Shown here one piece after another: positions 17,401 to 23,400 of a stretch of DNA of 64,000 nucleotides. Below the pieces are notes generated by a model, which had not been told where the DNA came from, searched no databases, and worked only from the letters and a program-made list of their open reading frames with translations. Both the position numbers and the translations under genes were made by a program. The stretch covers positions 88,286,690 to 88,350,689 of the forward strand of contig CM069443.1 in the NCBI GenBank assembly GCA_035610835.1, written 5' to 3'. Positions within the stretch are counted from its first letter, which is position 1; every line of letters begins with the position of its first letter. This DNA is from Ophiura sarsii (Eukaryota > Echinodermata > Ophiuroidea > Amphilepidida > Ophiuridae).

Positions 17401-20400
17401 GTCATACCAGTTGCTAGATACCAGTTTTGTATGTTAAACTGATAGTGTATACAAACACTTTAAATGGCTGACAAAATCAGTTCTTTATTGTCCTTATATG
17501 GTTGTGTGTACACTCTTGTGTCCAGGTGTTAGAAGACATACTGAATATTGTCTTTATTGTCCTTATATGGTTGTGTGGACACTCTGTGTCCAGGTGTCAG
17601 AAGACATACTGAATATTGTCTGGCTTTATTGTCCTTATATGGGTTGTGTGGACACTCTTGTGTCCAGGTATCAGAAGACATACTGAATATTGTCTGGTTA
17701 ACAATTGACAACACCTGTAACGAATTTCACATCATTTTAAAACCTTCAGAAGTATTGGTGTCTATTATATGTCATGACAGATACCTGTTCCTTTAATTGT
17801 TTGAGTAGCGTAAGTTGACAATGTGTATTTTGTTCTCATGTTCAGATATCCGTCTCATCAACAGTTTAGCAGTACGAGCTGCTCATACTGGTATGATAAT
17901 ACTGGGTGGAGGACTCGTCAAGCATCATATATGCAATGCAAACCTAATGGTAAGACACTATCCCTTTAACATCATATATGCAATGCAAACCTAATGGTAA
18001 GCCACTATCCCTTAAACATCATATAAGCAATGCAAACCTATGGTAAGACACTATGCCTTTAACATCATATATGCAATGCAAACCTATGGTAAGACACTAT
18101 CCCTTTAACATCATATATGCAATGCAAACCTAATGGTAAGCCACTATCCCTTAAACATCATATTATATCATCGCTATTCTTTCAAAACCTTGTATCTCCA
18201 TCCAGCCCTTCAGCATGTATAAAGTAATACTTCCTAGGTATGACCTTAAGGCGGTCTGCTCTAAACATTTTTAAGTGACAAAATCACATCTATCAAAACC
18301 CTTGTAAGTCCTCTTGTCCCGGAACATGTATAAAGCAACTCTTCCTATGCATAACCGTTGGCAGTTTTACTTTATACATGCTGAAGGGCTGGAAAAACAT
18401 ACAAGGTTTTGAAAGAATAGCGACGATATGCAATGCAAACCTAATGGTAAGAGACTATCCCTTTAACATCATATAAGCAATGCAAACATACCGGTAAGAC
18501 ACTATCCCTTTAACATAATATGCAATGCAAACCTTATGGTAAGACACTATCCCTTTAACATCATATATGCAATGCAAACCTATTGTAAGACACTATGCCT
18601 TTAACATCATATATGCAATGCAAACCTATGGTAAGACACTATCCCTTTAACATCATATATGCAATGCAAACCTTATGGTAAGACACTATCCCTTTAACAT
18701 AATATGCAATGCAAACCTAATGGTAAGACACTATCCCTTTAACATCATATATGCAATGCAAACCTTATGGTAAGACACTATCCCTTTAACATCATATATG
18801 CAATGCAAACCTAATGGTAAGACACTATCCCTTTAACATCATATATGCAATGCAAACCTATGGTAAGACACTATCCCTTTAACATCATATATGCAATGCA
18901 AACCTAATGGTAAGCCACTATCCCTTAAACATCATATTATATCATCGCTATTCTTTCAAAACCTTGTATCTCCATCCAGCCCTTCAGCATGTATAAAGTA
19001 ATACTTCCTAGGTATGACCTTAAGGCGGTCTGCTCTAAACATTTTTAATTGACAAAATCACATCTATCAAAACCCTTGTAAGTCCTCTTGTCCCGGAACA
19101 TGTATAAAGCAACTCTTCCTATGCATAACCGTTGGCAGTTTTACTTTATACATGCTGAAGGGCTGGAAAAACATACAAGGTTTTGAAAGAATAGCGACGA
19201 TATGCAATGCAAACCTAATGGTAAGAGACTATCCCTTTAACATCATATAAGCAATGCAAACATACCGGTAAGACACTATCCCTTTAACATCATATGCAAT
19301 GCAAACCTTATGGTAAGACACTATCCCTTTAACATCATATATGCAATGCAAACCTTATGGTAAGACACTGTCCCTTTAACATCATATATGCAATGCAAAC
19401 CTATGGTAAGACACTATGCCTTTAACATCATATAAGCAATGCAAACATACCGGTAAGACACTATCCCTTTAACATCATATATGCAATGCAAACCTATGGT
19501 AAGAGACTTTGCCTTTAACATCATATATGCAATGCAAACCTATGGTAAGACACTATCCCTTTAACATCATATATGCAATGCAAACCTATGGTAAGACACT
19601 ATGCCTTTAACATCATATATGCAATGCAAACCTTATGGTAAGACACTGTCCCTTTAACATCATATATGCAATGCAAACCTATGGTAAGACACTATGCCTT
19701 TAACATCATATAAGCAATGCAAACATACCGGTAAGACACTATGCCTTTAACATCATATATGCAATGCAAACCTATGGTAAGAGACTTTGCCTTTAACATC
19801 ATATATGCAATGCAAACCTATGGTAAGACACTATCCCTTTAACATCATATATGCAATGCAAACCTATGGTAAGACACTATGCCTTTAACATCATATATGC
19901 AATGCAAACCTATGGTAAGACACTATGCCTTTAACATCATATATGCAATGCAAACCTAATGGTAAGACACTATCCCTTTAACATAATATATGCAATGCAA
20001 ACCTATGGTAAGACACTATCCCTTTAACATCATATATGCAATGCAAACCTATGGTAAGACACTATGCCTTTAACATCATATAAGCAATGCAAACATACCG
20101 GTAAGACACTATGCCTTTAACATCATATATGCAATGCAAACCTATGGTAAGAGACTTTGCCTTTAACATCATATAAGCAATGCAAACATACCGGTAAGAC
20201 ACTATGCCTTTAACATCATATATGCAATGCAAACCTATGGTAAGAGACTTTGCCTTTAACATCATATATGCAATGCAAACCTATGGTAAGACACTATCCC
20301 TTTAACATCATATATGCAATGCAAACCTATGGTAAGACACTATGCCTTTAACATCATATAAGCAATGCAAACATACCGGTAAGACACTATGCCTTTAACA

Positions 20401-23400
20401 TCATATATGCAATGCAAACCTATGGTAAGACACTATGCCTTTAACATCATATATGCAATGCAAACCTATGGTAAGACACTATGCCTTTAACATCATATAT
20501 GCAATGCAAACATACCGGTAAGACACTATGCCTTTAACATCATATATGCAATGCAAACCTATGGTAAGACACTATGCCTTTAACATCATATATGCAATGC
20601 AAACATACCGGTAAGACACTATGCCTTTAACATCATATATGCAATGCAAACCTATGGTAAGACACTATGCCTTTAACATCATATATGCAATGCAAACCTA
20701 TGGTAAGACACTATGCCTTTAACATCATATATGCAATGCAAACATACCGGTAAGACACTATGCCTTTAACATCATATATGCAATGCAAACCTATGGTAAG
20801 ACACTATGCCTTTAACATCATATATGCAATGCAAACCTATGGTAAGACACTATGCCTTTAACATCATATATGCAATGCAAACCTTATGGTAAGACACTAT
20901 CCCTTTAACATCATATATGCAATGCAAACCTTATGGTAAGACACTATGCCTTTAACATAATATGCAATGCAAACCTTATGGTAAGACACTATGCCTTTAA
21001 CATCATATATGCAATGCAAACCTTATGGTAAGACACTATCCCTTTAACATCATATATGCAATGCAAACCTATGGTAAGAGACTTTGCCTTTAACATCATA
21101 TATGCAATGCAAACCTATGGTAAGACACTATCCCTTTAACATCATATATGCAATGCAAACCTATGGTAAGAGACTTTGCCTTTAACATCATATATGCAAT
21201 GCAAACCTATGGTAAGACACTATCCCTTTAACATCATATATGCAATGCAAACCTATGGTAAGACACTATGCCTTTAACATCATATATGCAATGCAAACAT
21301 ACCGGTAAGACACTATCCCTTTAACATCATATGCAATGCAAACCTATGGTAAGACACTATCCCTTTAACATCATATATGCAATGCAAACCTATGGTAAGA
21401 CACTATGCCTTTAACATCATATATGCAATGCAAACCTATGGTAAGACACTATGCCTTTAACATCATATATGCAATGCAAACCTATGGTAAGAGACTTTGC
21501 CTTTAACATCATATATGCAATGCAAACCTATGGTAAGACACTATCCCTTTAACATCATATATGCAATGCAAACCTATGGTAAGACACTATCCCTTTAACA
21601 TCATATATGCAATGCAAACATACCGGTAAGACACTATGCCTTTAACATCATATATGCAATGCAAACCTATGGTAAGACACTATCCCTTTAACATCATATA
21701 TGCAATGCAAACCTATGGTAAGACACTATCCCTTTAACATCATATATGCAATGCAAACATACCGGTAAGACACTATGCCTTTAACATCATATATGCAATG
21801 CAAACCTAATGGTAAGACACTATGCCTTTAACATCATATAAGCAATGCAAACATACCGGTAAGACACTATGCCTTTAACATCATATATGCAATGCAAACC
21901 TATGGTAAGAGACTTTGCCTTTAACATCATATATGCAATGCAAACCTATGGTAAGACACTATGCCTTTAACATCATATATGCAATGCAAACCTATGGTAA
22001 GACACTATCCCTTTAACATCATATATGCAATGCAAACCTATGGTAAGACACTATCCCTTTAACATCATATATGCAATGCAAACCTATGGTAAGACACTAT
22101 GCCTTTAACATCATATATGCAATGCAAACCTAATAGTAAGACACTATGCCTTTAACATCATATATGCAATGCAAACCTATGGTAAGACACTATCCCTTTA
22201 ACATCATATATGCAATGCAAACCTATGGTAAGACACTATCCCTTTAACATCATATATGCAATGCAAACCTATAGTAAGACACTATCCCTTTAACATCATA
22301 TATGCAATGCAAACCTATGGTAAGACACTATGCCTTTAACATCATATATGCAATGCAAACATACCGGTAAGACACTATGCCTTTAACATCATATATGCAA
22401 TGCAAACCTATGGTAAGACACTATGCCTTTAACATCATATATGCAATGCAAACCTAATAGTAAGACACTATGCCTTTAACATCATATATGCAATGCAAAC
22501 CTATGGTAAGACACTATCCCTTTAACATCATATATGCAATGCAAACCTATGGTAAGACACTATCCCTTTAACATCATATATGCAATGCAAACCTAATGGT
22601 AAGACACTATCCCTTTAACATAATATGCAATGCAAACCTAATGGTAAGCCACTTTGCCTTTAACATCATATATGCAATGCAAACCTTATGGTAAGACACT
22701 ATCCCTTTAACATCATATATGCAATGCAAACCTAATGGTAAGAGACTTTGCCTTTAACATCATATATACTTAAATTTTGTTTTATTTTTCATCTCCAGAG
22801 AAATGGTGCAGATTATTGTGTGTTTGTTAACACAGCACAAGAATTTGATGGATCTGATTCTGGGGCACGTCCTGATGAGGCCATCTCATGGGGAAAGATA
22901 AAACTCACTGCTAGACCAGTCAAGGTATGAAAATGCTTGCCTTTATATATACTCCTTTATATATACTGGAAGAGAAGTTATGCAGCTATGGCCCTTGGCG
23001 CGCATGCTAAATAATGAGCATGTGGACGGTAACATTCTTAATGTCATGGATACAATTGGCCCAATCAGATTGGCATGTTGGTCGAGTCAAAGTTGTGCTG
23101 TTCTACCTTGACAAACGCACTTATGTTTATGCTTAGTATGTGACCATTACAGAAAATGCTGAACTTCTTTGCTTCTAACAATAAGGCCTAAAAAAAAGAA
23201 AAAGTTTGATTGGCCTAACCTGACCGACCCTAAATACATCTCTGACCCTGGATATTTTGTTATTATTTTGAGGGAGGAAAAAAGGAAATTAAAATAAAAA
23301 ATATATATATGGGTGACCCAATAAAAAGTTTACCCAAAATGAAAGTGATATTTTTCCACTTCCTGTAATTTGATATCTGTGTTTTTTATTTTATTATAAA

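What the first reader, a model, noticed from the sequence alone, without database searches (positions are those of the whole stretch)
17923..22768. A satellite born from the DHPS exon 6 / intron 6 boundary gives about 93 tandem copies of a functional 5' splice site
The founding unit is the codons for His286-Met294, including an active-site histidine, plus the native donor G|GTAAGA. The repeat has spread to within 30 bases of the next acceptor. Nearly every copy keeps the donor hexamer, although unit types differ on both sides of it. The spliceosome must therefore choose the first of dozens of equal donors. Using the second copy would insert 15 codons and then a TAA, losing the catalytic lysine exon. 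It may be tolerated as a U1-binding decoy array, or it may regulate DHPS output through nonsense-mediated decay. I know of no well-described case of a satellite seeded by a coding exon's own splice donor at this scale.
Basis: partly seen in the sequence, partly recalled or inferred. Interest (0 to 1): 0.92.

Follow-up and report, generated by a model that had tools for sequence, protein, structure and literature searches.

The report
Tandem splice-donor array in brittle-star DHPS
In what is probably a brittle star, the junction between two pieces of a housekeeping gene has been copied 93 times in a row, so the cell must find the one correct cutting point among 93 near-identical ones; the repeat is real and seems to have been born on the spot, but a human example of the same kind is already known and nothing yet shows that it does a job.

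Summary
17923-22768 holds 93 tandem units, mostly 45-47 bp: the last 27 nt of DHPS exon 6 (His286-Met294) plus the first 20 nt of intron 6. GTAAG is in 93 of 93, GTAAGA in 89. The host gene is open: 8 exons, 380 aa.

The repeat was most likely born in situ. A search of the 1.57 Gb genome found it only here and, as a single unit, in two partial, array-free DHPS copies (C18, C19). Those suggest the pre-array state: the word CATCA in the exon and again 47 bp downstream in the intron. Founder-type units cluster at the array ends (nominal p about 1e-4).

Only donor 1 yields full-length protein. Each of the other 92 gives the same stop after 14 codons, before the catalytic lysine; nonsense-mediated decay is expected. 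Neither donor sequence nor predicted folding marks donor 1.

Not supported: special conservation of the donor (34 of 47 columns never vary), and absence of precedent (human IFI6 minisatellite with multiple splice donors; Turri 1995, known from citations).

Best reading: a local minisatellite tolerated because the first donor wins by exon context, with some leakage to decay. Splicing itself is untested.

The parts
8302..25191 (+). DHPS (deoxyhypusine synthase) gene: 8 coding exons 8302-8499, 10811-10978, 12402-12620, 13139-13225, 14221-14326, 17846-17949, 22799-22924, 25057-25191; 380 aa
   Evidence: PDB and Pfam matches to DHPS in translated frames; exon 8 placed by motif; open joined frame with GT..AG borders; one residue only (L337) stands against an 80% consensus with at most 2 of 120 homologues sharing it
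17846..17949 (+). DHPS exon 6; its last 27 nt (17923-17949, His286-Met294) are the exonic half of unit 1
   Evidence: H286, H287, N290, A291, N292, M294 identical in 120 of 120 homologues
17923..22768 (+). Minisatellite: 93 units, 92 spacings (52 of 46, 32 of 47, 6 of 45, 2 of 311 with insertions), each unit with GTAAG
17950..17955 (+). Native donor 1 (ATG|GTAAGA), the only donor giving the 380-aa product
17970..22768 (+). Units 2-93: 92 further donor copies; each, if used, gives the same 308-aa truncated product
18164..18429 (.). Inserted foldback (MITE-like) element in the array: inverted arms 18165-18271 and 18323-18429
   Evidence: sequence
18938..19203 (.). Second copy of the same insertion, 774 bp downstream, carried along in a block duplication (1 mismatch within the element)
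   Evidence: end coordinate taken as first copy + 774
22769..22798 (+). Remaining 30 nt of intron 6 (pyrimidine tract and acceptor); the aligned match to the array-free paralogues begins at 22784-22786
22799..22924 (+). Exon 7 with catalytic lysine K327 (human K329), lost if donors 2-93 are used
   Evidence: the catalytic role of the lysine is recalled knowledge

Best explanation
A local minisatellite was born inside DHPS. A 47-bp segment straddling the exon 6/intron 6 junction was tandemly duplicated, probably by slippage or end-joining between two copies of CATCA, one in the exon and one 47 bp downstream in the intron. It then expanded to 93 units by unequal exchange and block duplication, filling nearly the whole intron. 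The array supplies 93 near-equal 5' splice sites. It is tolerated because the spliceosome commits to the first donor: that one closes a normal 104-nt exon, next to the exon body and its acceptor, and is transcribed first. Any use of donors 2-93 gives one and the same stop after 14 codons and is expected to be removed by nonsense-mediated decay. The array is therefore at most a modest tax on DHPS output, not an evolved device. Shown: anatomy, array-free single-unit copies in the same genome with the CATCA repeat at unit spacing, the in-silico fate of every donor. Inferred: that those copies show the ancestral state rather than a collapsed array, the exchange mechanism, first-donor dominance, decay, lack of selected function.
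For: Unit search of the 1.57 Gb genome: 44 matches, 42 in this array and 2 elsewhere, both single units in partial DHPS copies (5 candidate places scored, very common words skipped, counts are lower bounds). Exon 6: three places. The C18 and C19 copies have exon 6, the donor and CCCTTTAACATCA with no repeat. Founder-type CTAATG units: 13 of 93, mean distance to the nearest array end 9.4 against 22.8 for random placement, nominal p about 1e-4, also after dropping units 16-19 as one copy of the duplicated block; units are not independent, so the p is nominal. The foldback insertion is duplicated at a 774-bp step with 1 mismatch inside the element. 34 of 47 columns invariant and 9 of 47 five-column windows free of variation, so GTAAG invariance needs no selection. 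Donor 1 gives 380 aa, the other 92 give 308 aa. The local habit fits: arrays of period >=20 and >=3 copies (ten intervals picked from TRF) cover 19% of the window, about 12% without this array. In IFI6 the units used are described as 'two downstream repeat units', giving three mRNA species (passage in PMC4526556).
Against: No RNA data. With competing identical 5' splice sites, classical cis-competition results (recalled, not looked up) can favour the intron-proximal one; here that is donor 93, with a 61-nt intron. Donor 1 has no advantage in sequence (ATGGTAAGA in 70 of 93 units) or predicted accessibility (rank 40 of 93, one parameter set). The paralogues' intron differs beyond CATCA from the window's 3' tail, so the founder intron is not certain.
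Confidence: 0.66

Rival explanations
1. Selected regulator: the array is an unproductive-splicing switch. The share of transcripts using donors 2-93, set by splicing-factor levels and by array length, tunes DHPS output through nonsense-mediated decay.
For: 92 of 92 alternative donors converge on the same early stop, upstream of two exon junctions with 126-nt exon 7 in between. No second intact DHPS was found, though only exons 3 and 6 were searched genome-wide.
Against: No sign of selection on the donor beyond general homogeneity. The shared stop follows trivially from the sequence between donors 1 and 2. No conservation across species could be tested.
Confidence: 0.13
2. U1-binding decoy or shield: the donors hold U1 snRNP along the intron, protecting it from premature polyadenylation or slowing splicing.
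For: GTAAG in 93 of 93 units, with G at -1 in 89 of 93.
Against: None of AATAAA, ATTAAA or AGTAAA occurs in the array; TATAAA occurs 4 times, in the inserted elements. So there is little evident signal there to suppress. One gene's transcripts are unlikely to titrate U1 (reasoning).
Confidence: 0.06
3. Assembly inflation or error: the true array is much shorter or differs in unit order and indels.
For: If the genome is the published Amphiura filiformis assembly, it is built from nanopore reads (PMC11310086 passages). The dominant variant differs from the founder by one base in an AA pair.
Against: Unit types carry linked substitutions (ATACCG in 15, AGACTTTG in 9), founder types sit at the ends, and the insertion block is duplicated once.
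Confidence: 0.09
4. The array sits in a dead copy and the working DHPS is elsewhere, so splicing is unconstrained.
For: Two further partial DHPS loci exist; their exons 6-8 are open with GT..AG borders.
Against: The window copy is open over all 8 exons and keeps near-invariant residues. C18 exon 3 is frameshifted; exon order is scrambled on C18 and C19; both carry N265D where 120 of 120 homologues have N. Genome-wide searches with exon 1 and the whole protein did not complete.
Confidence: 0.04
5. A pre-existing satellite inserted next to exon 6.
For: None found.
Against: The unit's exonic half is conserved DHPS coding sequence, and no copies were found outside DHPS loci at this sensitivity.
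Confidence: 0.02

Closest known systems
IFI6 (6-16, G1P3) minisatellite providing multiple splice donor sites (Turri, Cuin and Porter 1995, NAR 23:1854; paper not held, known from reference lists and one passage)
   Same: A minisatellite in a gene provides several splice donor sites; repeat units serve as donors (PMC4526556 passage). That it begins near the end of exon 2 is recalled.
   Different: Recalled: 12-bp unit, about 26 copies, interferon-induced gene. Here: 46-47 bp unit, 93 copies, catalytic region of a housekeeping enzyme, every alternative donor truncating, array-free paralogues in the same genome, usage unmeasured.
hTERT intron 6 VNTR (38-bp repeats; PMC3948165, abstract)
   Same: Intronic tandem repeat that changes isoform choice, in that case towards a non-functional form.
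   Different: Lies >1 kb from the exon junctions and acts by RNA:RNA pairing; the abstract does not describe its units as splice donors. Here exon 6 to unit 5 showed no unusual folding (z -0.27).
Intron gain by tandem genomic duplication of AGGT (PMC3443670, passages)
   Same: Tandem duplication of a piece bearing a splice-site word alters splicing potential.
   Different: That model needs the copies to supply donor and acceptor. Here the units supply donors only and no intron is gained.
Poison exons / alternative splicing coupled to nonsense-mediated decay (recalled)
   Same: Alternative form carries an early stop well upstream of the last junction.
   Different: Here 92 duplicated donors rather than one regulated exon; no evidence of regulation.

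Membership tests
Minisatellite | Tandem head-to-tail units of roughly 10-100 bp at a local site | tested here: met
   93 units, spacings 45-47 bp apart from two with insertions
Satellite DNA (large or dispersed families) | Same repeat in arrays at multiple or heterochromatic loci | tested here: not met
   No array elsewhere in the held genome at this sensitivity (5 candidates scored); two single-unit DHPS copies only
Multi-donor minisatellite (IFI6 kind) | Each unit contains a 5' splice-site motif | tested here: met
   GTAAG 93 of 93, G at -1 in 89 of 93
Multi-donor minisatellite (IFI6 kind) | Array begins at an exon's 3' end so that unit 1 holds the native donor | tested here: met
   Exon 6 ends within unit 1
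Multi-donor minisatellite (IFI6 kind) | More than one unit used as donor in transcripts | not testable with these tools
   No RNA reads available
Intron gain by tandem duplication | Duplicate supplies both a donor and an acceptor | tested here: not met
   By motif only, no acceptor scoring: AG in the units occurs chiefly as GTAAG, AAGAG or ATAAG (12 commonest contexts listed); CAG words after pyrimidines occur only in the inserted element copies checked
Splicing-coupled nonsense-mediated decay switch | Alternative form has an early stop >50 nt upstream of the last exon junction | tested here: met
   Stop after codon 308 in extended exon 6, followed by 126-nt exon 7 before the last junction
Splicing-coupled nonsense-mediated decay switch | Regulated use of the alternative form | not testable with these tools
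   No RNA data
Deoxyhypusine synthase | DS domain with invariant active-site His and catalytic Lys | tested here: met
   PF01916 and PDB matches; H286 in 120 of 120 and K327 in 119 of 120 homologues, the other row a gap

The most novel reading that the evidence does not exclude
Array length is a heritable dial on DHPS output. Each added unit raises the share of pre-mRNA spliced from a wrong donor and sent to decay, so a self-expanding minisatellite sets hypusination capacity. The gene is also trapped in a mutational hazard: only 17 of 93 units (unit 1 included) encode the same nine residues in frame, and 52 of 93 are one base short on the exon side, so most exchanges into exon 6 would change or shift the protein.
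Probability: 0.12. Interest if true: 0.85.

Novelty: new variant of a known kind. Interest (0 to 1): 0.57.

Why it matters
It is a natural version of the classic experiment on competing identical 5' splice sites, at 93 sites instead of a few, in an apparently essential enzyme. Donor sequence and predicted local folding give the first site no advantage, so how often it is chosen would measure how far position and exon context alone decide. The same genome holds array-free copies of the junction as an internal comparison, and RNA-seq of the likely species exists (a regeneration time course is mentioned in PMC11310086) and could answer it at once. It may also catch the birth of a minisatellite with its probable seed, a 5-bp direct repeat, still readable.

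Tried and rejected
Donor-specific conservation as evidence of function: rejected. GTAAG is invariant, but so are 29 further columns of 47. Donor-like words also turn up in an unrelated array: the 54-bp array at 29998-30463 carries GT[AG]AG in 0.58 of copies.

Structural privilege of donor 1: not found. Exon 6 to unit 5 folds like shuffles (z -0.27, 33 of 100 shuffles at least as stable), and donor 1 ranks 40 of 93 in 9-mer accessibility.

Protection from internal polyadenylation signals: none of three words tested occurs in the array; a fourth, TATAAA, occurs 4 times, in the inserted elements.

A satellite from elsewhere: rejected at the sensitivity.

Regular higher-order repeat: TRF lists periods 139 and 185, but full-unit identity at lags 1-12 is only 0.10-0.17 with no clear peak.

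CP_ATPgrasp_1 match on the minus strand lies inside the 60-bp array and no single stretch passes; taken as a repeat artefact.

Precedent searches; one search found no paper, one search was too broad to be useful. Turri 1995 and Parker and Porter 2004 are not held.

Genome-wide searches with DHPS exons 1 and 7, the whole protein, the paralogue intron and the inserted element did not complete, so the copy number of exons 1 and 2, whether the paralogue intron is a transposon, and whether the inserted element is dispersed remain open.

Recounting shows 17 of 93 encode the same peptide in frame: 9 with the exact DNA, 8 with synonymous CTT.
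Full report
WHERE IT IS. The window is G000:C3:88286690-88350689 of a 1.57 Gb assembly in 748 contigs. In the protein search (120 of 7988 hits listed) the top row is a 622-aa plant protein at 56% identity; the next named rows are sea urchins, a crinoid, hemichordates and sea stars at 75-79%. 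The published Amphiura filiformis assembly is 1.57 Gb with 20 chromosome-size scaffolds over 60 Mb, built from nanopore reads, GC 36.67% (PMC11310086, passages). The window's GC is 37.6%, and contigs C18 and C19 are 64.6 and 63.1 Mb. The species is therefore probably A. filiformis. That is an inference from size and kinship; no tool named the species of the window.

THE GENE. Translated frames match deoxyhypusine synthase and the last exon was placed by motif. Eight exons (8302-25191) join to an open frame of 380 aa with GT..AG borders. Against the 120 listed homologues, only one window residue, L337, both stands against a consensus of at least 80% (V in 101) and is shared by at most 2 of them. 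His286, the first codon of the repeat unit, is identical in 120 of 120. K327 is present in 119 of 120, the other row being a gap. By the alignment these are human His288 and Lys329; the catalytic roles are recalled.

THE ARRAY. Unit 1 is the last 27 nt of exon 6 plus the first 20 nt of intron 6. There are 93 units to 22768, 30 nt before exon 7. The 92 spacings are 46 (52), 47 (32), 45 (6) and two of 311 that hold an inserted inverted-repeat element. Exon-side types are CTATG 50, ATACCG 15, CTAATG 13 (the founder form), CTTATG 11 and four rare. GTAAG is in 93 of 93; the 9-mers are ATGGTAAGA 70, CCGGTAAGA 15, ATGGTAAGC 4, ATAGTAAGA 3, ATTGTAAGA 1. Is the donor specially kept? No: 34 of 47 columns never vary and 9 of 47 circular five-column windows are free of variation. 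The array is simply homogeneous.

ORIGIN. A genome search with two units gave 44 matches: 42 inside this array and 2 single-unit places, C19:5634526 and C18:6090485 (5 candidate places were scored and very common words skipped, so counts are lower bounds). Exon 6 itself has three places. The two others are partial DHPS copies: exons 6-8 on C19, exons 5-8 on C18; a further 40 kb upstream of each added none. Exon 3 has copies about 160 kb away on the other strand (C19) and, with exon 4, about 43 kb downstream (C18), where it is frameshifted. Both copies carry N265D, where 120 of 120 homologues have N (the residue numbers printed for these changes are one too low). Coding changes from the window in exons 6-8 are 3 silent and 8 replacing (C19), 6 and 6 (C18). 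So they look broken, but their exons 6-8 are still open with GT..AG borders, and scaffolding error could add to the scrambling. Neither has the repeat. Both read exon ...CATCATATATGCAATGCAAACGTAATG, then GTAAGACAATATCCCTTTAACATCA, then a different intron. The 5-bp word CATCA thus stands in the exon and again 47 bp downstream, exactly the unit length and phase. I take it as the seed of the first duplication. Two alternatives stay open: the native intron already read CATCATATATAC, as at the array's 3' end, giving a longer seed; or the copies once had an array and lost it.

GROWTH. Founder-type units sit at positions 1, 2, 5, 6, 12, 14, 16, 17, 33, 73, 90, 91, 93. Their mean distance to the nearest end is 9.4 against 22.8 expected, nominal p about 1e-4; without units 16-19 it is about 5e-5. 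The foldback insertion occurs twice, 774 bp apart, with one mismatch within the element. Both are what unequal exchange inside a growing array leaves behind. Only 17 of 93 units encode the same nine residues in frame (9 with the exact DNA); 52 are one base short, 9 are in frame with a changed residue, 15 differ in the left part. Most exchanges into unit 1 would therefore harm the protein.

CONSEQUENCE FOR SPLICING. Joining exons with each of the 93 donors gives 380 aa for donor 1 and 308 aa for each of the other 92. The stop precedes two exon junctions with the 126-nt exon 7 between them, so decay is predicted. Donor 93 would leave a 61-nt intron. By motif the units offer no evident acceptor, but each inserted element copy holds CTCCATCCAG, which is acceptor-like and unscored. 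AATAAA, ATTAAA and AGTAAA are absent from the array. Nothing tested marks donor 1: the same 9-mer in 70 units, accessibility rank 40 of 93, ordinary folding. If the gene works, as its open frame suggests, choice must rest on position: closing a 104-nt exon near its acceptor, and being transcribed first. This step is inference.

CONTEXT. Tandem arrays of period >=20 with at least 3 copies (ten intervals picked by hand) cover 19% of the window, about 12% without this one. Of nine such arrays checked (two merged), this alone overlaps a DHPS exon; other genes in the window were only partly scanned. If the window is typical, one array straddling a splice junction is less improbable than it looks; survival in a working gene is the notable part.

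PRECEDENT. [quoted passage not shown] The paper itself is not held; its unit length and copy number are recalled. The present case is larger by that recall, truncating in every alternative, and in an enzyme core, but not a new kind. I found no other case, which cover open-licence full text only and of which I saw listings.

VERDICT. Real, correctly located, correctly traced to its own exon/intron junction, and, at the sensitivity of the search, confined to this locus, with a likely pre-array state preserved in paralogues. Functional claims are untested; passive tolerance is most likely.

Noticed in passing
window 16090-17810: Intron 5 holds a probable Tc1/mariner-like remnant: ends that read as inverted copies of each other around 16090 and 17800 (16086-16200 and 17698-17820 match the same paralogue stretch in opposite senses), a sub-threshold DDE_3 match near 16845-17033 (E 0.09), and an internal 3-copy ~72-bp repeat at 17482-17697. 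The family name is a guess.
   Followed up: partly
window 9451-10045: A second minisatellite (66 bp x 9) lies in DHPS intron 1, not touching an exon.
   Followed up: partly
window 26635-28636, 29998-30463, 41952-43960, 44229-46337, 49957-50429: Five further minisatellites (units 60, 54, 81, 27, 40 bp) downstream of DHPS; the window is rich in tandem arrays. The 54-bp one carries GT[AG]AG in 0.58 of copies.
   Followed up: partly
window 41103-41214 with 48943-49054; 55932-55976 with 60111-60155: Pairs of tandem arrays with identical consensus and score, suggesting segmental duplications inside the window.
   Followed up: no
G000 C18:6088000-6136000 and C19:5634000-5796000: Dismembered DHPS copies with scrambled exon order; exon 3 frameshifted on C18.
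   Followed up: partly
window 18165-18429 and 18939-19203: Foldback (MITE-like) element, inverted arms of 107 nt at 78% complementarity, duplicated inside the array; each copy adds a GTAAGT word and acceptor-like CTCCATCCAG.
   Followed up: partly
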